Origin: Hygrophila difformis
Taxonomy: Eukaryota > Streptophyta > Magnoliopsida > Lamiales > Acanthaceae
Direction: 5' to 3'
Length of the DNA: 64,000 nt
Assembly: GCA_030278955.1 (NCBI GenBank)
Contig: JAOANR010000006.1
Location: forward strand, 30,841,383 to 30,905,382
Below are positions 29,879 to 57,888 of the stretch, piece after piece. The translations under genes and the position numbers were made by a program. The first letter of the stretch is position 1. Every line of letters begins with the position of its first letter. The notes beneath the pieces were generated by a model. That model searched no databases and was not told where the DNA came from. It was given only the letters and a program-made list of their open reading frames with translations.

Positions 29879-29889
29879 AGGGGGAAAAG

Positions 29890-37693: not shown

Positions 37694-37986
37694 TCTGGTA
37701 CAAATAGGATAGATCAGGACTGTTGAATTTAGCATATAGTCTAAGCAATGTATATGTGTTTTGTGATTTAGCATGTGGTGCTCGATCGAATTAAGAAGCG
37801 TCGTACGCTTGGGGTTTTATTTTAATTCGAATTTTTTTTTCGGCTGTACGGACAGATCTGTCCGCCCCTTTTTTTTTTTTTCGATTTATTAAAAATGAAT
37901 CGGGCATTTTATTTCCTTAAAAGAAAATTTTTTTGTACAAAAGTAGAAATATTTCCCTAGCAAAATAGTATCTAACAATAGAATCT

Positions 37987-38322
37987 CTAGTGTCTCATGA
38001 CGTCCTCCGGCGGAGTAGCAGGATCTTCCTCCGGATCTTCCTCATCCGAACTCGGCGGCAGTAGCTCGTCAAAGATAGTGTTTAAGTCTTGCCCGTGGGC
38101 ATCGATGTATTCCTTTAGTATTAAGTTTTGTGTAGTGAGGGTTTGGACTTGGCGTTCGAGTTGGTTTATGCGGTGATGATCCGCCTCTCTCAAGTTGCCC
38201 ACGTGATGTAAATTGGCCTCCAATTGAGCCATACGGTACTTCATTTGCTCTAAGGTTTGGTGGGATTCGAGATGAACGCTCATCATCCTGACCATCAACT
38301 GCATCATGTGTTGACTAGCCAT
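37987..38322 (-). CDS. Element C small coiled-coil ORF upstream of gag
   Basis: 111 codons, ATG at 38322, between the primer site and gag. The middle is a heptad-like helix (LEANLHHVGNLREADHHRIN, QLERQVQTLTTQNLILKEYI) and the C-terminus is acidic and Pro-rich (SSDEEDPEEDPATPPEDV). I do not recognise a family. It is open in an element whose gag-pol has three stops, and it sits where an extra 5' ORF could be translated first from the genomic RNA. It could be an accessory gag-like or nucleocapsid-organising protein, or a chance ORF in leader sequence. The spacer to gag (37694-37986) is AT-rich with a T14-like run near 37870. Confidence 0.5.
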   Translation of the reverse strand: MASQHMMQLMVRMMSVHLESHQTLEQMKYRMAQLEANLHHVGNLREADHHRINQLERQVQTLTTQNLILKEYIDAHGQDLNTIFDELLPPSSDEEDPEEDPATPPEDVMRH

Positions 38323-38599
38323 CTAGCACAAGCAAGAGATCTAAGTTAATATTCGCCAAGATTCTAAGTTCAAGTTTTGCCAAGATTCTAAGTTCATAGG
38401 AGAGATGCAATATGCAAATGCAAATGATGATTTCCCAAAAAAAAAAAAATAATTTAATGCAATATATATATTTTTTTCCATGGGTTTTAAAATAAAAATT
38501 TTCCATGGAAATAATACTTTAATATTTAAATTAATAGTCAAAATATTAATAATAGTCTAAAAATAGTAATGGCTTAAAAATAGTAGTTTTAAAAATAGC

Positions 38600-38614
38600 C
38601 GGGCTCTGATACCA
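38600..38614 (-). promoter_or_regulatory. Element C primer-binding site (tRNA-iMet)
   Basis: Minus-strand TGGTATCAGAGC three bases from the 5' LTR end, complementary to initiator tRNA-Met. Confidence 0.9.
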
Positions 38615-38617
38615 ACT

Positions 38618-41222
38618 TGTAACACCCCGGTTTTTGGTCACCCAGGTCGGGATGTCACCGCCACATCTCCCTAGTAAGACACGGTTTCTCCGAGCTTACT
38701 AAAGAGATGCAAGACTAGGTATTGCAGTATTTAAAACATTTAAATCATTCAAAATAGCCCATACAGTATAATTCGAAAATAATATTAACATAGCGCAGCG
38801 GAAATAATAGTTTTAGTACAGTATCGCAGCGGAAAATATGAATAGGGCCGACATGGCCAAAACACGGGTTAAACAGGCTCGTTCATAATATAGTCTAAAG
38901 TATGAATTTAAAAGCAAAATAATGTTTCCCAAAATCCCATGCATGAATCGTGCTCACACATGCTCATTCCACATATTCTGTAAGAAAAGGAATAAAAACG
39001 GTTTTGGTCAGCAAACTTGCTGAGTAAGTTAACACATGCATGATCGTAGGGTTTAAAAGCCATTAATTTTAATAATTTAATAAAAGCATGATACTAACAT
39101 AATATTTAATTTAATCTAACCGATAGCATAATTTATTTCAGGGCTCTATTTAACAACACATTTTGCATGACTTAGAATAATAGCCATAATTTAAATAAAG
39201 CATTTAAATAATTTAATTGGACATCAACCATAATTCAATTTAATTTAATTTAATTTAATATCCCCATTACATTCATGATTTGGTATTTCAAAGTTTCACG
39301 ATAGCATCGCGATGTCAACAAGTTTAGCCGGTAGCCCGGCGGCCGCAACCGTATCAGCCATACCCAGTACCACTCCGGAGCCTCGGGAAACCCATGTGGA
39401 TATTCACGAGAGTGTAGGCTCTATATTTCGCCGTTTTGGCAATATCATATCTCAAGTTTAGCGCGCGGGGTCACCATCGTCCATTAAGGCACGAAGTGAA
39501 GCAGTTAGGGGGCACCCTGCAGAGCACTCACCCCTAATTTTAATTTATCAAGTTTGTAAGGGGATTAAATTTCGAAAATCTGACTTTAATTGTATTCATT
39601 TAAAAATAATATCTCAACTCATTTCAACCCTAAAGGTTAATTCCATGTTTCAACAAGATTTCAAGATTTTGTTTCCGGTAAACCACAGTTTACTCTAAAA
39701 TTCGTCTAAAATCAGATTAAATTCCAAAAATTATAAATTTTCACGTTTTACTCAGAAACGTCGAGATCTACAACTTTCGTGTTTTAACTTTTTCAATCCG
39801 AGATACATAAATAGGTTAAAATCACCAATTTTCGCAGAAGAACAATTCTGTCCGAATTTAATGTATCACAGTTTAAAGATTTCGAATTCTACCATAGCAA
39901 TTCAACTCCAAATTTGATGAAATTTTACAGGGATCATCTTAAGACAATTATCTACGACTTTCATGTTCGGCCAAAGATCTAAAACAGTCTAGATCCTATG
40001 TCAAAAACGTGTTCAAGATCATTCCTAAGTTCTGTCCAGGATTTCAAGATATAGATTCAAGCAGTTCGGTTTCGGTTGGTTTTCACATATGAAATTGTCT
40101 CTAAAAATTCTCAAAAATTTACTGTAGTTAGATCTAAGCCTTAGGAACATTTTTCGTGTTTAAGTTTTTCCGTTTGAAGTCGTTTTAAGGTTCGGAAAAA
40201 TTCATCAAATCTGTTGCGTCGGTGGAAAGTATAAATTGACAGATTTTCGATTCCTTGTTAATCTTTTAGTTTTGAATGTTTTAATTCATCCCAAAACCAT
40301 GTAAGAGTTAACTTACAGAGGTGTGAACGTCCGGGATCGTCTATTTCGAAGGCGTGGCTTCCAGTCCACCGTTTCTCCTCTCCGTTCGTCGGGTTCTACG
40401 ATCTAGATCCAATTCGAGGTGTAGAAAGAAAAAGGAGATGATTAGAATTCATTTTCGAATTGTATATGGAACAAGGATTGGATCGTGACTTACCACGACT
40501 ATGGAGATCTTAGAATTTTCATCCAACAGTGTTCGCCTTGGTTTCGTGCCTCCGACGACTCCGGATTTAGGGTTTCGAATGTGTAGAGAGTTGTAGGGTT
40601 TCGTAAAAGTATTCGGAGCTCCTAGGAGGTCTTATTTATAGATATCTAAGACCTAGGGCGTCCAAAATCTGACCCCAAGGGTCTTGGGTCGAGAGACGTT
40701 CAACCGAAAGTCGAAAAATCCGCGTTCGGGCGAGAGATTCACGCAACGGGCGAATCTGTCGCGTGGCGCGGTCGTGGCGCGCCCTATGCCTATTGACCGC
40801 GCGGCCACCGCGCCGACTTCGCCTGGACTTCGGTCCGGGCGGGTCGTGCGATCCGTCATGCTTTTCCGCCTCTCTTTCGGGTTTCTATCCCTCTATGCTC
40901 CCGAATTCCGATTTCCGGGGTATCTTCGGGTTTCTACTTTCTCTCTAAATTTTTACTCGGGTCTAATTGGATGTTTGGACTCGAATCCTCGAGTTCATTA
41001 ATGTCGGGTTTCGGTGTATAATTTATTTACCTTTAATAATTCTTTTTATTTACTTAAATTTCTTTAATTCCTTTTTAAGTTAAATCTCATTTCTCATTTC
41101 CTTGTCTTTATTTATTTCTTTATTTGCTGGATTCATTTATTTATTTATGGTATTTATTTTATTTATTATTTATTTATTTAATTATTGTTCTATTTTATGA
41201 TGGAAAATTCTCTGGTATTACA
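38618..41222 (-). repeat. Element C 5' LTR (2.6 kb)
   Basis: Complete LTR, TGTAACACCCCGG to GGTATTACA in plus-strand reading. The U3 start (41040-41200) is AT-rich with (TTTA)n runs. A TATTTATAGATA stretch near 40635 reads TATCTATAAATA on the minus strand and is a TATA candidate. ORFs at 40653-41001 are not coding. Confidence 0.92.
40633..40642 (-). promoter_or_regulatory. Candidate TATA box of element C LTR
   Basis: TATAAATA core on the minus strand just upstream of a GC-poor leader, with the GC-rich block (40680-40870) upstream. The matching sequence in the 3' LTR is near 34738-34745. Confidence 0.5.
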
Positions 41223-41497
41223 ATTGGTTTCTCATGCAAGGTTATGGCCGCAATCCATAATTGATAGCTTAAATAATCCCTCCTACCATAATTAATTACA
41301 GTCCGGATTATCTGTTTAAGGTATCACAATTTTGTTTATAGAGAAATGTTTTAATGACAATTGAACAAAGATCCTTTAATCACAACAATCAGTGATTTAA
41401 TCATTGCTAATTATAATCATTAATCATTAATGACTAGAGGGTTCAATTAATTAATGATGGAGATGGAGAATGAAAAATCTGCATAAAGATGCTAACC

Positions 41498-41845
41498 ACG
41501 ACGCTATACAGATATTACGACGCTATCCTAGAATAGCGTCGTGAGGGTAGCGTCGTCATGGGTTGGTATAAGAGATGAGAAATTTTGGATTAAAGGGGTA
41601 TGTACGACGCTATACACCAAATCACGGCGCTATACTAGGATAGCGTCGTAGGTGGGTATTGTGAGAAAGAAAAAGTTTTGGGGACCTACGACTCTAAACA
41701 GAAATTACGACGCTATCTGAGGATAGCGTCATTGGTTTAGTGCCGTAGGGCAAATTTTTGTTTAAGTCTGGATAACTACGGCGCTAAACCTCACCTACGA
41801 CGCTATCCAAGGATAGCGCCGTAGGGCGGTTAGCATCGTAGCTAG
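41498..41845. repeat. Inverted-motif array, B 3' LTR, downstream of TATA
   Basis: About 13 TACG(A/G)CGCTAT and ATAGCGTCGTA motifs in both orientations, often paired (for example TACGACGCTATCC with GGATAGCG(C/T)CGTAG). Confidence 0.88.
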
Positions 41846-42496
41846 CCCAGAAACATGTTGTTGTTCGGGTGATGCAATCTCTGCGATTGCAAACCCTATT
41901 TTCGAGTTAATGGCTCACAAATGCATGAAAATAAAATAACAAGCTACGAGCAGTGAATGAAAATGCAAAAGAGATGCAAAACAGTAAAGGAATGATATGC
42001 TATACTACACATTCATGAACCACAAACCCAAGTGAGGGTTTTCAACCAACATATCATGCATGAATCCCAAAATAAAAGACGAACAACACAAAACCAACAT
42101 AAAACAGTAAGATAAAATGACCAAATGGTCATGAAACCAAAAACAAAGCATTAAATCCATGGACCCATGTCCATTTCATGATTTTGGGATACTTTCAATG
42201 ATTAACTTCCCATTTTTCATAAAATGGTTTGATAATACCCATCATTTGGGTATTTCAAACCTAAATAAGAGTTTAACAAAACTGGAAATCATATAACAGT
42301 GGCTACCTAGGTCTAAAACATGAAAACTAACACTAATCTAAGCTAACATTAACCTAAAGAAACTAAAACAGTGCATAAAAGTAAATAATACAAAAAATTA
42401 AGCTAACTACCTAACTAACCTACACACTCCAAGAACAGCAGTTGTCTCCAAGTTTGAAAATGTGGTGAAGTGACAAGACCAGGGAGTCAACACCTC

Positions 42497-42504
42497 TATA
42501 TATA
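42497..42504 (-). promoter_or_regulatory. B 3' LTR TATA box
   Basis: TATATATA within CCTATATATAGAGG on the minus strand. An inverted-motif array lies immediately upstream (42565-42830). The equivalent in the 5' LTR is 57269-57276. Confidence 0.75.
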
Positions 42505-42564
42505 GGCGAGAAACCCTAGGCCCATGGGCCCCCAGGCCTTGAAATTTGAATTCTGGCAAGGCTT

Positions 42565-42830
42565 ACGACGCTATAGGTGCATTACGGCGCTATCCTACTA
42601 CGGTGCTATAGGTCTAGCGTCATAGTCTTCCATCTCGAAGACACTCTTTGTTTCTGAATGGACAGCCTACGGCGCTATCCTTGCCTACGACGCTATGCTC
42701 GATTAAAGCGCTATCCATGCTTAGCGTCGTCCACTCTTCTTCAGATGTCAGCTTTGGTTTCCTCCTACGGCGCTAGACCAAGCTACGGCGCTATCCATGC
42801 ATAGCGTCGTAGTTGTGTCTAGCGTCGTAA
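42565..42830. repeat. Inverted-motif array upstream of the B 3' LTR TATA
   Basis: Around ten motifs of the TACGGCGCTAT/TAGCGTCGTA type in both orientations, ending about 60 bp from the TATA box. Confidence 0.85.
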
Positions 42831-43113
42831 TATCCTGTAAAATTTAACTTTTTGTGGGTTTTCATTTCTTTTCCCATCTTTTCATTTCCTTTTTCTTTCT
42901 TTTCTTTTTCTCATGTTTTTGGATTTTTCTAACATAAATGTGTAATAAAATTACACATTTATGCATTTTTCATATCAGCTCAATATTTTTACAGTTATGC
43001 ATAAATCAGTCCAATTTAACTGTTTTCTTATTTAATATAAGACCAGAATGCGATCAAATGCCCGTTTTAGACACGGAAATGGATTGAAAATAATGGTCAT
43101 TTCTGGCCATTAT

Positions 43114-43129
43114 CAACATCCTCACATTT
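43114..43129 (-). promoter_or_regulatory. B 3' polypurine-tract region
   Basis: Minus-strand AAATGTGAGGATGTTG overlaps the 3' LTR start TGATAATGG. This is the plus-strand priming position. The same 16-mer recurs internally at 45459 and 47372. Confidence 0.6.
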
Positions 43130-44718
43130 AATACTGATCGTCCCCGAGCAGTCAGAGTCAATGTTCTGAAGAACACGGACTCTTTATATTCAATTCATTT
43201 TCGTGGCTTCATAAATCTTATTCTTTTCGGATTGGGATAAGACAATCAAAAACTACAAGTATTGAATTCCCTTGATTGCAGTGTTTAATGAAATGATACT
43301 TGCTCACTACATCGGGCCTACAAATCAAGCATTATTGTCGATCCTTCATGAACATCATGTTTGAAAGATGCAAGGATTAAAAATTAGAATTAAAGTATGA
43401 CACGAACATAATTCATAAAACAGAGCCTCACATATAAGAGAATTGGAAAGTTGACTCACTCTCAATTGGGGTTTAATCATGATCGCTCAAAATCAATTTT
43501 AATTAAATTATCCCATAAGCTTGCGATCAGACCAACTCGCCACCGGCTCATTTCCTCAAATCGAGATCTCGAGGTCTTATTCAAGGGTTATAACGGGGCA
43601 TACGGTTGTAACATAGGTAGGAAAGGGAAATTATTGGGCTAAGGAGTGGCAAGAATTAATTCTATCATAGTAGGGCATATTTATTTAAAATTTATGATCA
43701 TCACTAATTCTTCTTCTTTCTCTTCTTTTGCATGACATTAGACTAAGTCTAATTTGTTTTGTCATTTGCAATTCAATTTTTTTTTTTTTAAATCGGTTTA
43801 GAACTTACCGATTAATACATTTTTTATGATCACAATTTAATGCCTTGATAAAATTTATTCTTACACACTTGGGTTTAAATTTTCTGGTCTTTTTATAAGG
43901 CTAGGAATAATATAGTGAGTTTCAAAGAAAAATTAGGCTTGAGGCTCAAAGTGGTTAATCCTAAAGGGAAAATATTTTTGGTTTTGGATTTCAAAAGAAT
44001 GCCAAAATTTGGGTTTTCTAGGTGCCTCAATCATATGCTCGATTTTGGGAATATGGCATGGTCTTGAATCGGTCCCAATCGCAAGTTCTAGTTTCCTTTA
44101 ATCAAAATGATTCACACATCAAAGAAAATGAATGAGTAAAAGTGACTCATGGCTCAAATCTCACAAGGTTGGATTGATTCATATCATAAAATATTCTCAA
44201 ATTTAATCAAAGCTTAATCCCAACACTTTATTCAATCAAAATCTCTAACATGCAGATTTATTACCCAATAAGCTGATCGCATCATTAAATTTTTATAGCT
44301 CAAAACCTCAGGAATTCATGTCATGCATGTTTTCAATTATATTATCCCAATTTAAAAGTTTGAAAATTTAATCACAAGCCTAAATTCAACATGTGAATTT
44401 AGAGCAGGTTTATGCATACTTTTGCTGATTATTTAATTTAAAGCAGTAAAGAGGCACTGCTGACATACAAAGTATGTCAACAACATATTTTTGGCCTGAC
44501 AGTCACTTATTCATCTCGGACTGTCAGACATCTTTTCAAAAAGAAAGCGAATAAAAAATTGTTTGTGGTTCTCAAACTTGAGTTCCATTTGTGGAAAGCA
44601 GTAAATTACATCAGCTTCAAGAGATTCCTATGCAGTTAGTACGAACCTGCATGCAAAAGAGGAAATCCCTGATATGATGCCTACACTAGAACTTTAATAA
44701 GATAAAACATTTCAGAAT
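43130..44718 (-). other. Element B 3' untranslated region
   Basis: No gene. Collinear with A 22470-23984. A 63-codon plus-strand ORF near 43451 overlaps the CGCCACCGGCTCATTTCCTC phrase and is not credible. Confidence 0.6.
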
Positions 44719-46584
44719 TCACCCTTCTACTCTTAGAGAATGTATCTGGCTGACGTAGCTGGTCATCTCACAGCGCAGGCACCAGCCATTGTGGTCTCTC
44801 AGGGGTTCATGCATCCTTGTGCAGTAGACTCGGGGTGGTTGGTCTGCAAATATGTAGGGAGTGTCCGGATCATCCGCCATCCATGAGAGAGTGTTGGTGG
44901 CCGTGTAGTTCAGGACCGATCGATCGGTCACCATTCTCTCTATCATTCTGATCCCCTGATTTACCTGGCCTTCATCCAACTTGCTCATGAGCATCAGCCC
45001 ACGGGTGAAGATTGACGCTTTGTGATTGTCTTCGATGCCTGGCCGCAGCAGTTCACATGCTCGCTCCTCATCCTCTTCTGCAAATGCCAGGAGTGCTGGA
45101 ACAATTTGGAGGTTGAAGTTTCCAGCCTCCGTGCATGTGTGCAGAAATCTCTCTTTCTGCCACCGTATCCTCCCTTGCCACTGCCTCACCCTAGCAGTAT
45201 CCAACTCGCATCGCTTGTACACGATGGCAAGATTTCCTGCGTTCCTGAATTTTTTGCATGTTTCTTGTGCAGTGAACACTTCCCTGATTTCATCCTCTCC
45301 TATTCGGGAGAGGATTTCACCTAGGAGCTCCTCCGGCAGATCAAGCAGTTGGGTTCCTCCGGGTGCAGGATCCGGGATAGGAAGATTGCCCCTGAAAAGA
45401 TAAGAAGTGATGAATCCAATTTTTACATTTTTCTCAGAAATTATTCAAGTTTAGGAACCAACATCCTCACATTTAGAGTTTTGCTCTAAATGTGAGATTA
45501 TTAAGTTTCTGACTTGAACTGATTAAAAAGCATAGGTAAAATAAATTTTTGTGAAGAGATAGGGGTTATTGGGCCCCTATAGATTTTTAATGGGTCATTG
45601 GGCCCAAAAGTTTGATTTTTGAATATTATTAAACAAGTTCGAGAAACTTGTTGAGAATGGAATGAGATGGATGGGTGGGGTGAAATGCTCGAATTTTTGG
45701 AATGTGCAGTGGACGCGTGGCGAAATGGATTTGCTATTTCTGGATCGTTTGGACTGCATTGGACAGTTGAAACATCCGCAAGAATTTGCAAACACTATTT
45801 TTAATTTTTAAAGGGTTGACTTGTTTTATTTAAGGAAAGTGGGGTGTGAGTGGTCTCATTTTGGATTTTGAAAAGGATAGCAGTTGAGTGACAAAAATAC
45901 TGCTATTTTACTCACACTACAGTTCCATTGGGAACAAAAAGAATAAGTCAAACATTAAATCTATTAGCTCTTTTTGTCTTTTTCTGAAAGTCACTTTTAT
46001 TAAAAAGGGTAAGCCCCTATTGGGTGTTTGTACTATGTTTCCATAAACAAACACACCTTTGTTCCAAGAGATCACTGACATGCAGATGCAAATATGCCAA
46101 AAGATCACCCTAATTAATGCTCTCTCTCCCACACAGCAAGTATACAAAACAAGATCAAGAACAAAGTTTTGAACAAAAACATCCAAAAATTCAATCCTAC
46201 TTTGTCAAGAACTCAAAAATAGAAAAACTAACAACATCATGGTGCTCAAAATAACACCCCAATGTTCATTAGTTCATCCTTTCCAGTTTTAACCAAAAAA
46301 ATCTTGAACCTTCAACAGTTTCAAAACGAACTTCCGAACAGGTTTTAAGGGTTTCACAAAGATTTCAAAATGGCTCCTTAGAACCGAGGGCAATGTTAAC
46401 TCAAAACAGAAAACAAAGACACAACCAGACCACATTATGCCATTTTAACCAAAAGGTAAGAAAAAGAAAACGATTCGACTGAGCCCATGAATAGGGATGG
46501 AAGACTGGGTTTTTACCCTGCCCTCCATGGCTCGGGTCTGGGCAAAGGTCCCAGGTTTGGAAGGATTCTATAGAATCTGTCCAT
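44719..46584 (-). CDS. Element B cargo: plant F-box protein, two exons, intact
   Basis: Exon 1 is 46584-46517 (ATGGACAG..., 22 codons plus GG) ending GGCAGG|GTAAAA. The intron is 46516-45392, acceptor CTTATCTTTTCAG|GGGC, and exon 2 is 45391-44719. The splice phase matches and gives 246 aa without a stop. Residues 39-75 read LDLPEELLGEILSRIGEDEI then a conserved TCKKFRNAGN, a good F-box (Skp1-binding) pattern of the At2g35280-like plant family. Residues after it (VYKRCELD, RFLHTCTEAGN, ELLRPGIEDNHKASIFTRGL) fit the family's FL-x2-C-x3-GN and GL-x-LL repeat region, and a Cys/His pair near the C-terminus (YCTRMHEPL, GWCLRCEM) fits its tail. Role by homology: substrate adaptor of an SCF ubiquitin ligase. 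It occupies the env position of an Athila element, so it is probably captured. Known caveat: another ATG lies 50 bp upstream, out of phase with exon 2. Confidence 0.72.
45392..46516 (-). other. Predicted intron of the B F-box gene
   Basis: 1125 bp GT-AG intron, phase 2, as in the A cargo gene. It contains the PPT-like 16-mer and hairpin at 45459-45502. Two plus-strand and several minus-strand short ORFs inside show no domain. Confidence 0.62.
45459..45502 (-). promoter_or_regulatory. PPT-like 16-mer plus hairpin, B intron
   Basis: CAACATCCTCACATTT, then TAGAG, a short loop and the complementary CTCTAAATGTGAG. Same structure as A 28246-28292. Confidence 0.5.
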
Positions 46585-46715
46585 GGTGTCCCCTTGGATT
46601 CGTGGAAAGAAATGTTGCTACGAGAACTCTGCATTCTGCGTAGATGTATTTGGTAGTGGATTTTGGGAATGGGAGTGCGTGAGTGTGGGAATGAAGAAGA
46701 AGGAGAAGGTCGGGG

Positions 46716-46723
46716 TATTTATA
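46716..46723 (-). promoter_or_regulatory. Internal TATA box of the B F-box gene
   Basis: CTATAAATACCCC on the minus strand, followed by a CT-rich leader and the F-box ATG 132 bp downstream. An inverted-motif array begins about 20 bp upstream. The arrangement suggests a cargo promoter independent of the LTR. Confidence 0.68.
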
Positions 46724-46741
46724 GGTGAGGAGAAAGGGTTT

Positions 46742-46988
46742 TACGACGCTATACTTAGCCTACGGCGCTATACTAGCGCTGTAGGTTTTGTTCAGCGTCG
46801 TGCAGTTGGTGGAGATAAGGGCGTACTACGACGCTATGCCTTTAGTACGGCGCTATCTAAGGATAGCGTCGTTCTTAAGGGACTGCGTCGTAGGTAGATT
46901 AAAAAGAGGGGGAAGTGCCCTACGGCGCTATCCCATTACTACGGCGCTATCCTAGGATCGAGTCGTAGGTGAGGATAGCGTCGTAGTT
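46742..46988. repeat. Inverted-motif array upstream of the B internal promoter
   Basis: About ten TACG(A/G)CGCTAT/ATAGCGTCGTA motifs in both orientations, including a head-to-head pair at 46848-46873. Confidence 0.87.
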
Positions 46989-47500
46989 GAAGGCGAGATT
47001 CAACTGCACTTCAGTTTTGAAATTTTTTCAAAATTTCAGGCGGACTGGGCCCGAGTGGATGAAATTGGGCCTCAGTTGGTTTTATTTATTTTGGACTTAG
47101 AAAGTTTTTAGTCCAAAACATTTTTGTGTTATAAATGGGCTATCTTAACTAAAATTATACTTGCATAAAATAGGTTGGATTAATTCCATTTGTTTGCAAA
47201 AATTATTTCGGGTTTTAAACTGCTTTAATTTCCAAAATCATTTTCTTAAATTCATGGAGTTAATCCAACCGGGAACCTGGTTTTCTTCTTTATTTTCTGC
47301 TCCTTCTTTTTGGTGGTTCAGGTATTTCTGCAAGACAGATAAATAGATCATTTTAGATTTTCTCCAAATATCAACATCCTCACATTTAGAGTCTTAGCAC
47401 TCTAAATGTTTAATTGATTTTGGGATATTTTCTGATAGAATAACACACATTTATAAATATGTAATATGAAATGAAATTTTTGTGATTTTAATGCTGTTTC
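46989..47500 (-). other. Conserved post-pol block of element B
   Basis: Non-coding and collinear with 57920-58360 of A (phrases TGGGCCCGAG, TTTAGTCCAAAACATTTTTG, CCATTTGTTTGCAAAAATTA). It contains a candidate splice acceptor TGTCTTGCAG|AAATACC (AG at 47329-47328) and the 16-mer/hairpin at 47372-47409. Confidence 0.6.
47372..47409 (-). promoter_or_regulatory. PPT-like 16-mer plus hairpin, B post-pol
   Basis: CAACATCCTCACATTT continuing into ACATTTAGAG...CTCTAAATGT, a 10-bp stem. A possible second plus-strand priming site or RNA element. The A homologue is at 58293. Confidence 0.5.
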
Positions 47501-50500
47501 TTATTGAGTGTAAGCCGGGTCTGCCACTGTTTGGCTTTCTTTCTCCGGATCGAACTGTCCGAGGTACTCCTTTAATCGATGTCCATTCACCACTATGTTG
47601 CCCTTGTCAGTTCGGATCCTGACGGCTCCATTCTGAAACACTTCTAGTACTTCATGTGGTCCTTCCCATCTGGATTTAAGCTTTCCAGGGAACATCTTCA
47701 ACCTAGAATTGAACAATAAAACACTTTGACCAACATAAAAATGCTTAGGCTTAATCCGGCGATCGTGTAACTTCTGGGTCCGCTCCTTATAAATTCGAGA
47801 GCTTTCATAAGCTAATGCTCGTATTTCCTCAATTTCATTGAGGTCCAACTTGCGTTTGCTCTGAGCAACTTTCGAATCGAAGTTGAGCGTTCTAACGGCC
47901 CAGTAAGCTTTATTGTCTAACTCTACGGGCAAATGACAAGCTTTTCTGAAGACGAGCCTGTATGGAGACATCCCAATAAGAGTCTTATATGCCGTGCGGT
48001 ATGCCCATAGAGCGTCATTGAGCTTACGTGCCCAATCCTTACGGGTTATCCCGACTGTGGCTTCGAGTATATGTTAGATTTCGCGATTGGATACTTCGAC
48101 TTGACCACTAGTCTGGGGATGATAAGGCGTGCCTATCTTATGGAGGATTCCATTTTTACTCATTCAAGTTTCAAAAGCTTTATTAATAAAGTGTGTTCCT
48201 CCATCAGATATCACCACCCTAGGTATGCCAAATTGACTGAAAATGTTGTTCTTGAGGAACTTGATGACTTGGCTACCATCATTGGTCGGTAATGCGATAG
48301 CCTCGACCCATTTGGACACGTAATCGACAACTACCAAGATATAGTAGTTTCCACCGGATGGTGGGAACGGTCCCATGAAGTCAATGCCCCATACATAGAA
48401 AATCTCAAGTGTGAGCATTCCCTTTTGAGGCATCTCATCCCTCTTGGAGAGATTTCCTAATCTTTGGCATTTGTCGCAACCTTTCACAAATGTCCTGCAA
48501 TCCTCATAGATGTGAGGCCAATGAAATCCACATTCGAGGACCTTGTGGGCCGTTCGAGCGGGACCATGGTGACCTCCATATTCTGATTCATGGCATTTTC
48601 TGACAATTTGATAGGCTTCATGCTCGGTCACACATCGCCTGATTATTGAATCGGTGCAGTGTTTGAAGAGATAAGGTTCTTCCCAGAAGTAGTTTAATAC
48701 ATCTCGGTTGAACTTATTCTTCTGATGATAGTTCAAAAAATGTGGGGTTATTCCGCACGCCAAGAAGTTAGCGATGTCGGAAAACCATGGACAAGCTTGA
48801 TTGTGCAAATGCAATGCGAACAACTGTTCGTCCGGGAACTCTTCGTTAACGGCTTTCTCCTTTTTATCATTTTCTAATCGAGATAAGTGGTCAGCAGCAC
48901 CATTATCTCTACCTCGCCTATCTTTTATTATGATGTCGAATTCTTGCAACAGAAGTACCCACCTGATTAATCGAGGTTTGACATCTTGTTTGCTAAACAA
49001 GTATCTCAATGCTGTATGATCGGTGTACACTATGGTCTTCGTACCTATCAGATATTGTCTGAACTTGTCAAACGCGAAGACTACAACATACATTTCCTTC
49101 TCCGTTGTGGTGTAATTAACTTGGGCCTCATTCAGGGCATGACTTGCGTAATGAATTACGCAATGTCTCCCGTCCTTATGTTGCCCGAGTACTGCACCTA
49201 CGGCGAGACCACTAGCATAGCACATTACCTTGAAAGGTATTGACCAATCGGGTGGTTGCACTATCGGTGCAGAAACCAACATCTTCTTGAGCGTGTCAAA
49301 GGCTTGGACACACGCTTCATTTATTAAGAAAGGATTTTCTTTACAAAGCAGATTAGTGAGCGGCTTGGCAATTTTAGAGAAATCCTTAATGAATCTTCGG
49401 TAAAAACCGGCATGCCCTAAGAAGCTCCTAACTGATTTGATCGAGTTGGGGAGAGGGAGATTGGAAATGATGGAGACTTTGGCTGGATCAACCTCGATGC
49501 CTGCACGAGAAATGCGATGACCTAACACTATGCCTTCAGTGACCATAAAATGGCACTTTTCCCAGTTTAAAACCAAGTTAGTGTCCTCACATCTCTTTAA
49601 AATCTTAGCAAGATTAGTCAAACATTCATCAAACGTATCTCCATATACGGAGAAGTCATCCATGAAGACCTCAATGCATTTTTCGATAAATTCAGAGAAT
49701 ATAGACATCATGCATCTTTGAAAAGTAGCTGGTGCATTGCATAATCCAAAAGGCATGCGCCTATAGGCAAAAGTGCCATAGGGGCATGTAAAGGTAGTTT
49801 TTTCGTGATCTTCACTGGCGATCACTATTTGATTGTATCCAGAATAACCATCTAAAAAACAATAAAATGCCCTTCCCGCCAACCGTTCCAACATTTGATC
49901 GATAAAAGGTAAAGGGAAATGGTCCTTGCGAGTTGCCTCGTTCAACTTCCGGTAGTCTATGCAGACTCTCCATCCGGTGACTGGGCGCGTGGCAATTTCC
50001 TCCCCTTGTTCATTCTGCGTGATGCACATCCCACCCCGCTTCGGAACAACCTGCACAGGACTGACCCATTTGCTATCAGAAATCGGGTATATAATACCGG
50101 CGTCTAACAGCTTGATCACTTCCTTTCTTACCACTTCTTGCATGGGTGGGTTCAATCTTCGTTGGGGCTGGCGAGAAGCCTTGAAATTCTCCTCCATTAA
50201 AATCCTGTGCATACAAACAGAAGGGCTTATTCCTTTAATATCAGAAATGGTCCAACCGATTGCACGCACATAATTTTTAAGCACTTCCACCAAAGCGTTT
50301 TCTTGAGCTTGTGTCAACTTGGCTGACACAATTACCGGTAATTTTTTATGTTCTGCGAGAAACGCATACTTAAGATGTTCCGGTAGGATTTTTAGTTCAA
50401 GCTCTGGTGGGCATTCCACTGAAGGGAGTAATTTGCGAGAATTAGATGGGGGAAAATCAGTTTTACCTTCCGGATCCTGCATCAGTACAGGATCCGCCTC

Positions 50501-53410
50501 CTCTTGGTCGGCGTCGTCATGGAAGTCGGTGCCGTCAAACTCCTCCAAATCCCCTGTTTCGGGATCGGCAAAGTGAACGGCTTTGCATCCTTTGTGCTCC
50601 ACGCCAGCAGGTCTCAGTACCTGCTTTGAAAATTCATCCAGCATCATTTCATGATCAAATTCAGAGTCATGCTCTCTATCCTCACTCCTAACTATTACAG
50701 ATTTTGATGTACAGAACCCGTCATCTGGGTATTTCTGTAATTGTGCCATGTCAAATGTAACTTCTTCCTCATCGACTCGCAGTGTTACTCGTCCAGCTTT
50801 TGCATCTATCAATGCTCCGCCTGTTGCAAGGAATGGTCTCCCCAAGATCAATGGCATGTCCAGATCCTCCTCTGTGTCTAGAATCACAAAATCAACTGGG
50901 AATAAGATATTCCCAGTCTTCACTATGATGTCCTTGAGGATGCCGACAGGCTTCGTGATGGATCTATCAGCTAATTGGAGTCTCATCTTGATTGGCTCGA
51001 TATGTCCCAGCTTGAGGCGTTGCACCATTGCCAAAGGCATCACATTGATGCTAGAGCCAAGATCACAAAGGCCTTTTCCTGCTTTGATTTTCCCGATTTG
51101 AATCGGCAGCGTGCAACAGCCTGGATCTTCTTGCTTCTCAGGAAGCTTGCGCTGGATGATAGCACTGCATGTATTGTTAAGAACTACCAGTTCTTCCTGC
51201 TCAATTCTCCTTTTTCCTGAAACTAATTCTTTCAGAAATTTAGCGTATGCTGGCATTTCAGCTATCATTTTGATGAGAGGAATAGTTATTTCTACTTTTT
51301 GCAGCCTTTTCAGAAATTTTTCAAATTTAAGGTCCTGTTCTTGATTTTTAAGTCGGGCCGGGTATGGCACCCTTGGCATGAACTTTTTATTATCAAATTG
51401 TTTTTGTGGTAAAGGGAAGGAAGTTGTACCTCCACCTGTACCCTTATCTATTTCAGCTGTCTCAGGTGCAGCATCACTCTGCAGATTGGCTGTCTCTTTT
51501 TCGGCTTCCTTTTCATTCTCCTCAATGTCACTTTCCAGTTCATTTTCTTGTACCAGTTTCTCTTTGCCCTTGGGTCCTTCCAAAACTTTGCCAGACTTCA
51601 GTGTGATGGCCTTACACTGAGGATTTTTCTCAGCAGTGCTGGGTAGAGTTCCTTGGTCTCTTTTCTGCATTTCCTTGGCCATTTGTGTAACCTGTGTCTC
51701 CACATTCCGAATAGAAGACTGCAACTGAGTGTTGATTTCCTTTTGGCTGGTGATGAAGTCAGTCATGAGGGTCTCTAATCTGGAAGGGGGTTTCTGCTGG
51801 TTCTGGTTCCAATTCTGGTTCTGACCTTGGTTTTGAACAAACTGATTCTGATTTGGGGCAAACTGATTCTGTGGCTGCTGAAAGTTTTGGAAATTTTGGT
51901 TTTGAGGTGGCCTAGCTAGAATCTGAGGCTGAAAACCTGGGTTAAAATGCTGGGGCCTTGGTTGGTTGAACTGTTGGGGCTGGGTCAACAGGTGGGAATT
52001 CAAAGCGTTGTTGTTGGAATATGAAAGGTTTGGGTGCCGGTTTTGGAATCCACCTGCATAGTTACAGCTTTCATTCGCCACTTGCTGACAGGACTCAGTG
52101 GAATGCGGGCCTTGGCAAGTCCCGCAAACAACTTCAGCATTTTGAGTCTGTGTAGAGCTCCCAGCTTCTTGATTCAAGGCCAAGACAGCCACTTGGTCTT
52201 TCAGTTTGTCCAGTTCAGATTTCCCTGCTGTACCTACAGCACATAAACCACGAGGGGGAGGGGGATCAACATCATCAGTTAGAACAGATCTATTTACACT
52301 CATTGCTTCAATCTTGCCCCAGGCCTGATCCATTGGTATGTAGAGCAAATGTTGACCACCAGCAGCATCAAGCATGTATTTCCAGGATGGGGTCAAACCG
52401 CTGTAAAACTTCTTTAATTGCTCCCACTCATGGAAGCCATGTTGGGGGCACTTTCTGAGCAGGTTGAAGAACCGTTCCTTTGCGTCATACAGGGACTCAT
52501 CTGGCTTCATCTTGAATTCCGCAATTTTGGAACAGCATTCATCCACCTTAGATTCCGGAAAGTATTTCGCCAGGAAGTTTCGGATCACTTCTTCCCAGGT
52601 GGACTTCTGATTAATTGGCAGCGATTTGTACCATGTTCGCGCTCCACTAGTCAAAGAGAAGGGAAATAATCTCAATTGAATAGTGTTAGCAGACACATTT
52701 TGATTCTTAATGGTGTCACATAGCTCCAAGAAAGTTTGCAAATGATCATGTGGGTCTTCATGACTTGCCCCAGCAAACTGATTGCTCTGAACGAGATTGA
52801 TGAGTGCCGGTTTCAATTCGAAATTCTTGGCCAAAAATGGAGCTTGTCCAGGAATGTTCAAATATGGTTCCAGGATGGGCTGCATATAGTCAGCTGCGGC
52901 TGCCTGTTGATTGTTCCCTGGTCCTCCTTGGTATTGTTGTGGGTAAAAGTTCTGATTCGGATAGTAATTTCTGGGATCATTGAAATCGTTAGGGTTAGGA
53001 TGATTCTGGTTTTGGTTAAACTGGGGGTTTGGAAATTGAGGATTCTGAAAATTTTGGTTGTTTGGAGGATTTTGAGGGTTTGGATTGGGAGGAGGTGCCT
53101 CGAAGTGTTGCTGTTCAATGTTTGGTGGGTTCCCGCCTCCTTGTATGATCTGAGGAGGGGGATCATCCAAATCATCGTTATCAGCATCTTCGGGGTCTTC
53201 CTCAATGTTGTGAAGTGGTGGATTGGGTGGGATGATTGGGGGAAGGTCAGGGTTGGCCATATCGGATATGTCGCTACTGGTGCTCGGTGAAAGTAGTGCC
53301 TGTCTCTCCCGTTCCCGTCTTCGTTTAGTCTCCGCCCTAAGACGTCGAGCTGTCTTTTCTATCTCTGCGTTGTACGGGATTTCAGCTGGCGTCTGCTTCC
53401 TCCTTTGCAT
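47501..53410 (-). pseudogene. Element B gag-pol (Athila type), nearly intact
   Basis: One frame from ATG 53410 to the stop at 47501, 1969 codons, broken only by TGA (48166-48164) and TAA (48076-48074). Gag: Asn/Pro/Gln-rich N-terminus, capsid-like region at residues 185-370, CCHC knuckle [13 protein letters not shown] (429-441). Protease: [14 protein letters not shown] (about 781-794; DLG for the usual DSG/DTG, as in Athila). RT: about 1080-1300 with catalytic FMDDFSVYG (1249-1257). RNase H: about 1393-1510; the first catalytic Asp position reads MCYAS instead of MCDAS. Integrase: zinc finger H-x-H..C-x2-C (CDKCQR near 1645), core [10 protein letters not shown] and ISDGGTHF; the third acidic residue lies past the first stop in SGQVEVSNRE. 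It would make all replication proteins for B and possibly for A. Confidence 0.93.
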
Positions 53411-53550
53411 AGAACAATGGCTTCAATACTGACAGTACCTGTACAATCACCAGGTTAGAATTGGTTTTGAAGGTGACTATTTATATTTATATGTATAAGC
53501 TAACTAAGAGCAATGAGGAATGTAATTCTCTAATAAAACGGTGCTGCATC
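53411..53550 (-). other. Element B leader between primer site and gag
   Basis: Short AT-rich 5' untranslated leader of about 140 bp. The part next to the primer site (GTAATTCTCTAATAAAACG) is conserved in A at about 58410. Confidence 0.5.
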
Positions 53551-53569
53551 CTCCCCGGCAACGGCGCCA
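53551..53569 (-). promoter_or_regulatory. Element B primer-binding site (tRNA-Asp)
   Basis: Minus-strand TGGCGCCGTTGCCGGGGAG directly at the LTR edge, complementary to the 3' end of plant tRNA-Asp, the usual Athila primer. Confidence 0.88.
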
Positions 53570-56264
53570 TGAAACTTTTGACAATTTCCTCACACGAGTA
53601 TTTTCTAAAATATCCCAGGTTAAATTTATTAAATGAAAAGAGTTATGATTCATGGGAAAGGGGTTTAAGGATATAGTTCACTTTTTATTACTCATGAGGG
53701 GAAAGACTTTGAGTTCAAGCGGCGTTATGGACCTCCCCGGCATGAAACTTTTGACGATTTCGTGCCTTGAAGATCCTTGCCATGAAACTTTTGACAAGCT
53801 CCCACTACATGAGCACTTTCAGAAAGGTCATAATCCTGGTGTTCAATTTTATTTAATGAAACCAATTTATGAAGGCGAAGTTGGGATTAAGGATATATTT
53901 ATAGGTTGTCACGTTTTTATTACTCGTGTTAAGAAACTGTGGCCCGAAAGCGCACGGTGTCAAAAATTGCAGTAATTTGTAGTAAGACCGGATCGTTCAC
54001 TGGAGGATGTGCGATAGAAGCAGGGCCCACATCGTTTTACTAGATTTTCTATTCGTATTGCTCCAATTGGTTTGAAAAGTGATTATCAACTACTGACTGA
54101 ATTTAAACTAAATTACAAAAGCGCTTAAATCTATTCTACAAAGCATATAAATTCTATTCTAGAAAGCGGGTACAGTTATTCTAAGAATGCGATGAGCACT
54201 ATCTCTAAAAGCAAAGAAAATTTACACTATGCTAGCTATGAAGCTGATTCACAGTGTGGACAGAAGGGACAGGAAGAGAAGAATGAAATTGGACAAGATT
54301 TAGATAAGGCATAATTAAACTTCCAGCTTTATACACAGATCTTTGCTTGGGATAATCCTGTCAGATAGCTAATTCTCATGCTCTCAATACTGCGTTCCCT
54401 TTAACAGACAGGTACTTACAGCATGAGTTTACATGTTCTTAAGACCGCAAATTCTAAGATACCACAGATTTGTAACTGCCCTGGCCTGGGTATGTTACTT
54501 TACCTGTGGTGGATAAGCAACACCTGACAAATCATTTATTGACAAGCCAAGTACTACTATCATTCTCCCATGTCACACCCAAAGATTCTAATCAAGCCCT
54601 GAACTATCCCTTAACTATCAATCCTAGTAGCAGTTACGCAACTCTCAATTCACCCGAGTGACCTCTAATGAAAGCATTAAAAAGAAAGCGATAAAGAAAG
54701 CATTTAAAATCCTATCACTCAGAGGTTGTGAAGGTCTGACCCTGGTAGTAAAAGACAGCTCCCCATCAGAATGACGGAGTATGGATCAAGAATTCCCGGC
54801 TCTTGGTGAACTACTCATGTGTTCACTTCCTTCCGGGTGGTTATGAGATACAAACTAATGAAATGAACTAATAAATTAGTTCATTCCGGATGTACTCATT
54901 CAGGAGTCAAGAATAGGCTTTGGCAGAAGAAGATAGCAGTTGAAAGAAAACTTAACCCTATCTTAGAAAATAGCCAAGGCCTGGGTGTTGTTCCTCTAAT
55001 ATTACCCATCACACCGTATTTGAGTCCAAGTGGACCCCATCTCAGTGTAATATTTAATATCAGATTCCCAACGCACAACAATTTTGGAAAATAATGAATC
55101 TGAAAACCATTCCCTAAACAGGTACTAGACTCTCAATTAAAACACAGATCCTTTCAGTCTAGATGAGACCTAATCGCTGACTCTGTTTGTAATTTCCCAA
55201 AATCAACCCTTGACAGAATATTAATTAGTCATAACTGAAGAATTTATCCCTTACTCAGATCCGGATTTTATAAAGGAGTTTTTGTTGGAAATTTAATACA
55301 CAATATCTGTTTAAATCTAGACTTCTATTGTCCAAGGGAAGGATCCCAAAATATTATAGACCACAATAGTACATAATATTATCATGCATAAGAATATATG
55401 GAAGTGTAAAATTAATCGACCCAAAATATAGAGGCGGGTCTAGACAGAGAGTGAAACACAAATATGAAGCGGTCAGAGGACCAAAGCAATGGTAGAATAA
55501 TTGGGTGGACTGTAAACATCTACTGGCCATTTTCCCAATTACTCGGATGAAGTGAATTTAGACAGATAAACCCTCAAATGGCAGTGTCGCTACCAGTTGG
55601 GCCCCTACTGTCTGTGAATTCAGATAAAAACCTACATGCTTCCTTTCTGCATTATTTATCAGCTAATGTTGACAGACATTAGCAGAGTTATACTACAGAT
55701 TGGAATTTGGGTTTGGAAATTAAGATAAGGAAAATAAAACTGTATCTGGATAGGAGTCAGCTGAGCAGCTATTATAATCCCGAATGGACGAACCGCCAAG
55801 GCTTCCACTGACTGCCATCCAGACCATGCAAAATAACGCTTAGTAACTAATACCCAGAATACGAGCTAGTTATCCGTGAGGGAATATCCGCCAACATTAG
55901 TCTGATGTATTCTTTACTAATTTTTACACACAATACGCAAAAGACAAAATAAAATAAAATAGAGAGAAGAACTTGTATGAGAGACATTGGTTTCTCATGC
56001 AAGGTTATGGACGCAATCCATAATTGATAGCTTAAATAATCCCTCCTACCATAATTAATTACAGTCCGGATTATCTTTTAAGGTGTCACAATTTTGTTTA
56101 TAGAAAAATGTTTTAATGACAATTGAACAAAGATCCTTTAATCACAACAATCAGTGATTTAATCATTGCTAATTATAATCATTAATCATTAATGACTAGA
56201 GGGTTCAATTAATTAATGATGGAGATGGAGAATGGAAAATCTGCATAAAGATGCTAACCACGAC

Positions 56265-56620
56265 GCTATACAGATATTACGACGCTATCCTAGAATAGCC
56301 TCGTGAGGGTAGCGTCGTCATGGGTTGGTATAAGAGATGAGAAATTTTGGATTAAAGGGTATGTACGACGCTATACACCAAATCACGGCGCTATACTAGG
56401 ATAGCGTCGTAAATGTAGCGTCGTAGGTGGGTATTGTGAGAAAGAAAAAGTTTTGGGGACCTACGACTCTAAACAGAAATTACGACGCTATCTGAGGATA
56501 GCGTCGTTGGTTTAGTGCCGTAGGGCCAATTTTTGTTTAAGTCTGGATAACTACGGCGCTAAACCTCACCTACGACGCTATCCAAGGATAGCGCCGTAGG
56601 GCGGTTAGCGTCGTAGCTAG
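56265..56620. repeat. Inverted-motif array, B 5' LTR, downstream of TATA
   Basis: TACGACGCTATCC and reverse-complement motifs, about 14 copies, collinear with 41498-41845. It has one extra TAGCGTCGTA pair that the other LTR lacks. Confidence 0.87.
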
Positions 56621-57268
56621 CCCAGAAACATGTTGTTCGGGTGATGCAATCTCTGCGATTGCAAACCCTATTTTCGAGTTAATGGCTCACAAATGCATGA
56701 AAATGAAATAACAAGCTACGAGCAGTGAATGAAAATGCAAAAGAGATGCAAAACAGTAAAGGAATGACATGCTATACAACACATTCATGAACCACAAACC
56801 TAAGTGAGGGTTTTCAACCAACATATCATGCATGAATCCCAAAATAAAAGACGAACAACACAAAACCCACATAAAACAGTAAGATAAAATGACCAAATGG
56901 TCATGAAACCAAAAACAAAGCATTAAATCCATGGACCCATGTCCATTTCATGATTTTGGGATACTTTCAATGATTAACTTCCCATTTTTCATGAAATGGT
57001 TTGATAATACCCATCATTTGGGTATTTCAAACCTAAATAAGAGTTTAACAAAACTGGAAATCATATAACAGTGGCTACCTAGGTCTAAAACATGAAAACT
57101 AACACTAATCTAAGCTAACATTAACCTAAAGAAACTAAAACAGTGCATAAAAGTAAATAATACAAAAAATTAAGCTAACTACCTAACTAACCTACACACT
57201 CCAAGAACAGCAGTTGTCTCCAAGTTTGAGAATGTGGTGAAGTGACAAGACCAGGGAGTCAACACCTC

Positions 57269-57276
57269 TATATATA
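57269..57276 (-). promoter_or_regulatory. B 5' LTR TATA box
   Basis: TATATATA on the minus strand. The array at 57335-57600 is immediately upstream. This would start the genomic RNA. Confidence 0.75.
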
Positions 57277-57334
57277 GGCAAGAAACCCTAGGCCCATGGG
57301 TCCCCAGGCCTTGAAATTTGAATTCTGGCAAGGC

Positions 57335-57600
57335 TTACGACGCTATAGGTGCATTACGACGCTATCCTACTACGGCGCTATAGGTCTAGCGTCGTAGTCT
57401 TCCAACCCGAAGACACTCTTTGTTTCTGAATGGACAGCCTACGGCGCTATCCTTGCCTACGGCGCTATGCTCGATTACGACGCTATCCATGCTTAGCGCC
57501 GTTCACTCTTCTTCAGATGTCAGCTTTGGTTTCCTCCTACGGCGCTAGACCAAGCTACGGCGCTATCCATGCATAGCGTCGTAGTTGTGTCTAGCGTCGT
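57335..57600. repeat. Inverted-motif array upstream of the B 5' LTR TATA
   Basis: About ten motifs in both orientations, better preserved than in the 3' LTR (for example TACGACGCTATCC at the site that reads AAAGCGCTATCC at 42705). Confidence 0.85.
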
Positions 57601-57888
57601 AATATCCTGTAAAATTTAACTTTTTGTGGGTTTTCATTTCTTTTCCCATCTTTTCATTTCCTTTTTCTTTTCTTTTCTTTTTCTCATGTTTTTGGATTTT
57701 TCTTACATAAATGTGTAATAAAATTACACATTTATGCATTTTTCATATCAGCTCAATATTTTTACAGTTATGCATAAATCAGTCCAATTTAACTGCTTTC
57801 TTATTTAATATAAGACCGGTATGCGATCAAATGCCCGTTTTAGACACGGAAATGGATTGAAAATAATGGTCATTTCTGGCCATTATCA

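What the first reader, a model, noticed from the sequence alone, without database searches (positions are those of the whole stretch)
44719..46584. Athila-type retrotransposon carrying an intact spliced F-box gene in the env slot
Seen: with GT-AG splicing (46516/45392) the minus strand encodes 246 aa without a stop, and the splice phase fits exactly. Residues 39-75 have the F-box pattern (LDLPEELLGEILSRIG..TCKKFRNAGN), followed by FL-x2-C-x3-GN and GL-type segments typical of At2g35280-like plant F-box proteins. Established: F-box proteins are SCF ubiquitin-ligase adaptors. Inference: a host gene was captured and kept open while pol gained stops. A retroelement with an SCF adaptor might target host silencing factors, as some viral F-box proteins do.
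Basis: partly seen in the sequence, partly recalled or inferred. Interest (0 to 1): 0.93.

Follow-up and report, generated by a model that had tools for sequence, protein, structure and literature searches.

The report
Retrotransposons that encode F-box proteins
A high-copy family of plant retrotransposons carries its own F-box gene (and a sister family carries five of them), kept by natural selection, which suggests that these elements hijack the plant's protein-disposal machinery.

Summary
Element B (window 30301-57888, minus strand) is an Athila-type Ty3/gypsy retroelement. Between pol and the 3' LTR, a two-exon gene encodes 246 aa with an F-box and a plant TPR_27 domain. An outer element (A) in the same window shares the splice donor, acceptor, phase-2 intron and 3' UTR, but its second exon encodes PF20167, also reported as a 3' accessory gene of sunflower Athila.

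It is not a one-off. The 915-Mb genome gave 6106 first-look candidates; 150 were scored and all 150 match. Of 39 neighbours chosen by 3'-UTR DNA alone, 39 carry F-box exon sequence and 19 are fully open. dN/dS is 0.19, against 0.12 for integrase; changes shared between copies are far less amino-acid-altering than private ones (N/S per site 0.145 against 0.460, p = 1.3e-7). A related Athila family carries five consecutive F-box genes; its first gene has at least 148 copies 93-100% identical.

Best reading: selected retroelement accessory genes encoding SCF adaptors. The target is unknown; attack on host silencing is inference. No expression data were available. My ten literature searches found no precedent.

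The parts
46517..46584 (-). Exon 1 of the F-box gene (MDRFYRILPNLGPLPRPEPWRA, ends in phase 2)
   Evidence: found in 23 of 25 loci over 3 kb, ATG kept in 21 of 23, GT donor in 23 of 23
45392..46516 (-). Intron (GT-AG, 1125 nt; 1036-1157 nt in 16 other copies measured)
   Evidence: both sites conserved in element A
44719..45391 (-). Exon 2: F-box (~45238-45348), TPR_27 (~44917-45168), Cys/His-rich C-terminus; stop at 44719
   Evidence: purifying selection
46716..46723 (-). TATA box (TATAAATA) of a probable internal promoter
   Evidence: Sequence; also in element A and, letter for letter, in 14 of 23 loci examined (in the other 9 the matched stretch was short or of a second promoter type)
43116..44718 (-). 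3' UTR and 3' untranslated internal region, shared in large part with element A and with other copies
43116..43129 (-). PPT next to the 3' LTR (AAATGTGAGGATGT)
45461..45474 (-). Second copy of the PPT-like motif, in a hairpin about 70 nt before the exon-2 acceptor
47374..47387 (-). Third copy of the PPT-like motif, just after pol
47501..48073 (-). C-terminal part of integrase, separated from gag-pol by a break
48164..53422 (-). gag-pol open frame, 1752 codons (gag, protease, RT, RNase H, integrase)
53552..53569 (-). Primer binding site TGGCGCCGTTGCCGGGGA (tRNA-Asp type, as in Athila; tRNA assignment recalled)
53570..57888 (-). 5' LTR of element B (TG...CA)
30301..43115 (-). 3' LTR of element B, interrupted by nested element C (32721-40880)
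   Evidence: K2P to 5' LTR 0.013-0.017
18341..62553 (-). Outer element A (LTRs 18341-22469 and 58449-62553, TSD GTAAT) into which B is inserted; its internal parts show no DNA match to B's gag-pol
23985..27587 (-). Element A's broken env-slot frames with PF20167 Transposase_32 (in frame 24384-25448), in the place of B's F-box exon
29682..29719 (-). Element A's exon 1 (MASSSSSKAEKP..., 38 nt, also phase 2)

Best explanation
The F-box gene is a functional accessory gene of an Athila retroelement lineage. SHOWN: it occupies the exon-2 position of the element's third gene, behind a leader exon, donor, 1.1-kb intron and acceptor that are conserved, with a TATA box upstream in many copies. It occurs in the same place in copies across the genome and evolves under purifying selection of a strength similar to that on integrase. 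A sister family carries five such genes in a row. INFERRED: the element transcribes it from the internal promoter, splices it, and makes a 246-aa protein (about 242-244 aa in most open relatives). Its F-box binds the plant SKP1/ASK subunit, and its TPR_27 and Cys/His-rich part selects a substrate, so that a plant SCF ubiquitin ligase destroys that substrate to the element's benefit. Most likely targets are host factors that restrain the element, such as silencing or virus-like-particle restriction factors (about 40% for silencing in particular).
For: Domains: TPR_27 in 29 of 29 and F-box in 22 of 29 open copies; 5 of 5 array ORFs match an F-box model and TPR_27 at E <= 0.01. Slot: of 20 8.5-kb loci, taken from the list and mostly from rows without stops, 19 have the pol end upstream on the same strand (L017 is cut by the locus edge) and 17 the LTR start downstream. 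Gene model: conserved in A and B and in copies. Selection: 46 protein-picked sequences dN/dS 0.138; controls in 20 sequences (window plus 19 of these loci): integrase tail 0.121, 110 pol codons 0.105. Picked by 3'-UTR DNA: 40 sequences, dN/dS 0.194, shared changes 119 syn/57 nonsyn against private 75/114, p = 1.3e-7 (without the divergent L074: 0.185, p = 2.5e-5); differences by codon position 26/17/57% against 29/35/36% in 3' UTR. pN/pS by part: F-box 0.188, TPR_27 0.196, linker 0.256, N-terminus 0.335, C-terminus 0.337. Array family: five ORFs open in L088 and L090, pN/pS 0.12-0.27.
Against: No transcript, protein or binding data. F-box score of the window copy is just under Pfam's cut-off, and 7 of 29 open copies miss E 0.01 for F-box. 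Folding without an alignment failed (mean pLDDT 37) and no solved structure is related by sequence. About half of the copies picked by 3'-UTR DNA are not fully open (20 of 39), and the window copy itself has an aberrant C-terminus and a broken pol, so this individual copy may be dead. The picked copies are the 40 best of 4497 candidates, not a random draw. The exact TATA box was seen in 14 of 23 loci only. The substrate is unknown; nothing here shows silencing suppression.
Confidence: 0.75

Rival explanations
1. Passenger: a host F-box gene fragment was transduced once and has merely been copied along, without use to the element.
For: Transduction of host genes by plant LTR retrotransposons is well known (PMC7264820, part 1 read). 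20 of 39 copies picked by 3'-UTR DNA are not fully open.
Against: dN/dS 0.14-0.19 and depletion of amino-acid changes among shared variants, similar to integrase. The intron varies in length while exon 1 largely keeps its peptide. A passenger does not readily give five retained paralogues.
Confidence: 0.04
2. The SCF adaptor serves replication directly rather than defence evasion: for example timed turnover of Gag or integrase, a cell-cycle shift (as recalled for nanovirus Clink), or exclusion of rival elements.
For: Same domain evidence. Diversity peaks in leader, exon 1 and exon 2 (mean pairwise 0.128, 0.123 and 0.108) against pol 0.050 and LTR start 0.052, which would also fit competition between element subfamilies.
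Against: Nothing decisive; five paralogues per element suggest several substrates or an arms race rather than one housekeeping role.
Confidence: 0.3
3. An F-box-like protein that does not work through SCF; the TPR_27 and Cys/His part acts alone (for example nucleic-acid binding) in the place of the PF20167 protein.
For: F-box score is marginal; in element A the slot holds PF20167, whose function is unknown to me.
Against: The F-box segment has the lowest pN/pS, though barely below TPR_27, and by eye is the best kept part of the divergent copy L074; it is recognisable in 5 of 5 array genes.
Confidence: 0.12
4. Independent host gene or another transposon nested in the Athila element.
For: Exon 2 has 52% GC against 33-35% in 3' UTR and intron.
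Against: Same place next to the 3' UTR in 39 of 39 copies picked by 3'-UTR DNA; splice sites shared with element A.
Confidence: 0.01

Closest known systems
Athila elements with a PF20167/PF03078 3' accessory gene (sunflower Athila 14, PMC11728184, passages; element A here)
   Same: A shares slot, orientation, splice architecture, PBS type and 3' region with B; the sunflower element has PF20167 in a 3' sense ORF
   Different: B's exon 2 encodes F-box plus TPR_27 instead of Transposase_32
Orchid Ty3/gypsy elements with an AlkB-like 2-ODD gene (PMC9289625, passages and section 12)
   Same: Gypsy elements with a host-type domain as an extra ORF, kept through several rounds of replication
   Different: RNA demethylase, not an SCF adaptor. 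F-box does not occur in that paper's main text; its supplementary chart was not seen
Plant F-box proteins of the At2g35280 type (TPR_27; name recalled)
   Same: F-box followed by TPR_27 and a Cys-rich end
   Different: Encoded by a retroelement, high copy, no close relative found
Viral F-box proteins such as polerovirus P0 and nanovirus Clink (recalled, no paper read)
   Same: Would work alike: a parasite-encoded SCF adaptor
   Different: No sequence relation tested; target here unknown
Grande gene23 and other accessory genes with their own promoter (PMC7264820, parts 1-2; PMC11963269, passages)
   Same: Accessory gene between pol and 3' LTR with an internal promoter
   Different: Grande's is antisense and has no clear similarity to known proteins

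Membership tests
Athila lineage (Ty3/gypsy, OTA) | Polyprotein order gag, protease, RT, RNase H, integrase | tested here: met
   (protease match weak, E 0.003); RT region up to 73% identical to plant retroelement proteins; no phylogeny was built
Athila lineage (Ty3/gypsy, OTA) | PBS of tRNA-Asp type, 5-bp TSD, TG...CA LTRs | tested here: met
   that these are Athila traits is recalled
Athila lineage (Ty3/gypsy, OTA) | No second (aRH) RNase H, which marks the Tat clade | tested here: met
   Only RT_RNaseH/RT_RNaseH_2, on one place, found by Pfam; criterion from PMC6317226 (passages)
Athila lineage (Ty3/gypsy, OTA) | PF20167/PF03078 gene in the 3' slot | tested here: not met
   Met by the related outer element A, not by B. 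The feature is frequent, not universal (PF03078 in 16% of Athila elements), so B stays in Athila as a variant
F-box protein (SCF adaptor) | F-box motif at the N-terminus | tested here: met
   Just below cut-off in the window copy; 22 of 29 copies at E <= 0.01; an F-box model above cut-off in 3 of 5 array genes
F-box protein (SCF adaptor) | C-terminal domain of a kind found with plant F-boxes (pairing recalled) | tested here: met
   TPR_27 in 29 of 29
F-box protein (SCF adaptor) | Binds SKP1/ASK and directs ubiquitination | not testable with these tools
   Needs a bench test
Retroelement accessory gene (aORF) | Present in most copies and under selection | tested here: met
   39 of 39 neighbours among the 40 best of 4497 3'-UTR candidates; dN/dS
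Silencing suppressor | Suppresses RNA silencing or TE methylation | not tested
   No data

The most novel reading that the evidence does not exclude
A plant retroelement clade has turned the env slot into a cassette of ubiquitin-ligase adaptors. One family carries one F-box gene and a sister family five diverged F-box genes per element, kept by selection and recently spreading, and the cassette may be exchanged between elements. This would be an endogenous-retrovirus-like parasite with an arsenal of SCF adaptors aimed at several host restriction factors.
Probability: 0.45. Interest if true: 0.95.

Novelty: new variant of a known kind. Interest (0 to 1): 0.88.

Why it matters
What the third gene of plant env-class retroelements does is an old open question, because the usual products have no recognisable activity. 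Here the slot holds a domain with a well-understood biochemistry, under demonstrable selection and in very high copy, so its partner (SKP1/ASK) and substrates can be fished directly. If the target is a silencing or restriction factor, it would be a transposon using targeted protein degradation against its host. F-box gene families of plants may also have exchanged members with such elements (speculation).

Tried and rejected
Rejected: passenger gene; nested DNA transposon or independent gene; PF20167 and the F-box exon being homologous (no clear alignment after the acceptor).

Led nowhere: protein relatives in the 5.8-billion set (none among 368 and 217 candidates; word-limited); viral contigs with the F-box exon and with a pol piece (none); Rfam on the window (none); PDB by sequence and by profile (nothing related); structure without an alignment (mean pLDDT 37, so no fold search was made). 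The species was not established; I guessed a genus from genome size and chromosome count, only looked it up, and do not rely on it. A donor host gene was not found.

Literature: ten searches, full text of the held library only. None led me to a report of an F-box gene in a plant LTR retrotransposon. For most listed papers I saw only the listing and the start of the abstract; passages of PMC13317346, PMC11963269, PMC9289625, PMC1142308, PMC6317226, PMC12844716, PMC8764390, PMC12786077 and PMC11728184; parts 1-2 of 3 of PMC7264820; section 12 of PMC9289625. PMC8764390 mentions an F-box family 'LTR-gene' in Thlaspi, as I read it a host gene copied by an LTR element, not a family-wide accessory gene.

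Sampling: L009-L028 were taken by me from the 150 best protein matches, mostly rows without stops; L029-L048 from rows left over, many flagged with stops. L001, L002 and L006 were dropped as repeats of the window, L009 and L010. In one search I chose P0009 and P0062 because their listing showed PF20167; of the 120 polyproteins listed only 3 show it (P0009, P0062, P0077).

Full report
WHAT IS THERE. The window holds nested retroelements on the minus strand. Outer element A has LTRs 18341-22469 and 58449-62553 (K2P 0.032) and TSD GTAAT. Inside A's internal region sits element B: LTRs 53570-57888 and 30301-43115, TSD GTCGT, PBS TGGCGCCGTTGCCGGGGA directly after the 5' LTR. B's 3' LTR is interrupted by a third element (32721-40880, LTRs 98.1% identical). 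B's two LTRs differ by K2P 0.013-0.017, which is roughly one million years at 7e-9 per site per year (rate recalled). B encodes a 1752-codon gag-pol frame (53422-48164) and, after a break, the last 190 codons of integrase (48073-47501).

THE GENE. Between pol and the 3' LTR, exon 1 (46584-46517) and exon 2 (45391-44719) join in phase 2 to 246 aa. Pfam finds F-box (PF00646, 19.3 bits, cut-off 20.5) and TPR_27 (PF23310, 32.2 bits, cut-off 27) in that order. Exon 2 is stop-free in one of three sense frames; 0 of 20000 simulated sequences stayed open.

ELEMENT A SHOWS WHAT ELSE THE SLOT CAN HOLD. A's internal parts show no DNA match to B's gag-pol; its leader runs from the PBS straight into the post-pol region. 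Aligned with B, A has the same TATA box, a leader exon ending at a GTAAGA donor (phase 2, MASSSSSKAEKP), the same hairpin in the intron and the same TTTTCAG acceptor. After the acceptor the sequences part company: A has broken frames, one of them with PF20167 Transposase_32. The sequences become alike again around A's last stop codon, and A's 23058-23897 is 88% identical to B's 43784-44630. PF20167 is also reported for the 3' sense ORF of a sunflower Athila (PMC11728184, passages), and lies downstream of the integrase domain in P0009 and P0062, two plant polyprotein models that I chose because they list it (3 of 120 models listed show it). So B differs from A by a different exon 2 behind shared splice sites.

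IT IS A FAMILY TRAIT. The genome that holds the window (915,113,747 bases, 246 contigs) gave 6106 first-look candidates for the F-box exon; 150 were scored and all 150 match, 85-100% identical. Of the 20 8.5-kb loci that I cut out (mostly from rows without stops), 19 of 20 have the end of pol upstream on the same strand (the other is cut by the locus edge) and 17 of 20 the start of the LTR downstream. Exon 1 was found in 23 of 25 loci longer than 3 kb; its start codon is kept in 21 of 23 and the GT donor in 23 of 23, while intron length ranges from 1036 to 1157 nt in the 16 loci measured. The CAG acceptor is kept in 25 of 25 of these loci; among the 39 at least L053, L068 and L071 have lost it.

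SELECTION. Sequences picked by protein similarity (46 with the window) have dN/dS 0.138, but such a choice favours conserved proteins. I therefore picked copies by 741 bases of 3' UTR, which says nothing about the coding exon: the 40 best hits of 4497 candidates. All 39 non-window hits carry F-box exon sequence next to it (L050, L059 and L077 only part of it); 19 of 39 are open to at least 215 codons and 20 are not. In these 40 sequences dN/dS is 0.194 (0.185 without the divergent L074); changes shared by two or more copies are 119 synonymous and 57 nonsynonymous, private ones 75 and 114 (Fisher p = 1.3e-7; without L074 111/52 and 76/94, p = 2.5e-5). Variants are counted once each, but not as independent events on a tree. 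Differences fall 26/17/57% on codon positions 1/2/3, against 29/35/36% in the 3' UTR of the long loci read the same way. The integrase tail of 20 elements (the window's included) gives dN/dS 0.121 and the same contrast (53/20 shared, 36/46 private), and 110 pol codons 0.105. The gene thus seems to decay after insertion and to be kept during replication, as pol is. pN/pS is lowest in F-box (0.188) and TPR_27 (0.196) and highest at the two ends (N-terminus 0.335, C-terminus 0.337), as would fit an adaptor with a fixed SCF side and a more variable end (inference).

A SISTER FAMILY WITH FIVE. A search of the same genome with TPR_27 returned 150 scored of 5039 candidates, most rows (by eye) with a 260-codon frame. 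Of 8 such places fetched, 7 belong to one family and 1 (L085) is a different, host-like frame. One place of the family (L088) starts with integrase C-terminus (61% identical to B's) and continues with five open frames of 247-272 codons on the same strand. Each of the five matches an F-box model and TPR_27 at E <= 0.01 (frame 3 is weakest, all its scores under Pfam's cut-offs). They are 27-54% identical to each other and 31-38% to the window's gene. A second locus (L090) has all five open at 92-98% identity; a third (L089) keeps frames 4 and 5 and a piece of 3, with a stop in frame 4. pN/pS is 0.12-0.27 (2, 2, 3, 3 and 9 copies). The first frame alone has 148 scored copies of 6208 candidates, 93-100% identical, on 15 of 15 large contigs; 77 of these 148 have a copy of the fifth frame 3.4-7.3 kb downstream (median 4.7) on the same strand, with one wrong-strand pair within 8 kb (both lists are capped). 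Near-identical copies suggest recent amplification.

UNEVEN HISTORY. Among 21 elements, mean pairwise DNA difference is 0.050 in pol, 0.052 in the first 270 bases of the LTR, 0.089 in the 3' UTR, but 0.108-0.128 in leader, exon 1 and exon 2. Distances in the 3' UTR do not track those in pol (r = 0.07, 127 of 500 permutations as high), whereas those in exon 2 do, moderately (r = 0.45, 0 of 500). One copy (L074) with a close 3' UTR has an F-box exon only 62% identical in protein. Some exchange between elements is likely (inference); that the F-box exon itself is freely swapped is not shown.

HOW IT PROBABLY WORKS. Shown: gene structure, position, domains, selection. Inferred: transcription from the internal TATA box (seen letter for letter in 14 of 23 loci), splicing, assembly with host SKP1/ASK and CUL1, and destruction of a host protein. 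Silencing factors are an attractive target by analogy with viral F-box proteins (recalled), but roles in replication or between elements are not excluded.

WHAT SPEAKS AGAINST. F-box score is marginal in the window copy and 7 of 29 open copies miss E 0.01 for it; no expression or binding data; no usable structural model; no relatives outside this genome found, which also means that the donor is unknown; this window copy has an odd C-terminus and a broken pol; half of the copies picked by 3'-UTR DNA are not fully open.

NOVELTY. Accessory genes in the env slot, captured domains and internal promoters of plant LTR retrotransposons are known (PMC7264820, PMC9289625, PMC11963269). An F-box gene there, and an array of five, I did not find in ten searches of the held library (listed in Tried and rejected). 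I therefore call it a new variant of a known kind.

Noticed in passing
L088:1444-7089 and L090:1457-7223 (G000 C1:748000-757500 and C12:29481200-29489000): Athila-type elements with five consecutive, diverged, open F-box/TPR_27 genes after integrase; the family is high-copy (148 scored copies of the first gene 93-100% identical).
   Followed up: partly
window 43116-43129, 45461-45474, 47374-47387: The PPT motif AAATGTGAGGATGT occurs three times in B (after pol, in the intron and at the 3' LTR); the two inner copies lie in hairpins about 45-70 nt before a splice acceptor or candidate acceptor. The motif recurs in A and a similar hairpin follows the F-box array. Possibly central PPTs or exchange points.
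   Followed up: partly
window 57889-58448 and 22470-30300: Element A shows no DNA match to gag-pol (its leader runs straight into the post-pol region) but keeps the env-slot gene: probably a non-autonomous element that kept the third gene.
   Followed up: partly
window 46740-47000 and 29830-30300: GC-rich short repeats (TACGACGCTAT-like) upstream of the internal TATA box in A and B; B inserted into one of A's copies. Could be an upstream promoter element.
   Followed up: no
window 10851-11642: A further PF20167 Transposase_32 frame beside an element at about 9.8-18.3 kb that looks copia-type by eye, outside the Athila elements A and B.
   Followed up: no
L074 (G000 C14:37234928-37236028): A divergent F-box exon (62% protein identity, with a stop) next to a 3' UTR that is 93% identical to B's: exchange or deep diversification.
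   Followed up: partly
L085 (G000 C10:34088950-34090100): A host-like TPR_27 frame (182 codons, 52 bits) with a Cys-rich end, only remotely similar to the retroelement F-box proteins.
   Followed up: partly
window 1-1000: Tandem array of a roughly 58-base unit (TCAATACTTCACC...) seen in the self-comparison.
   Followed up: no
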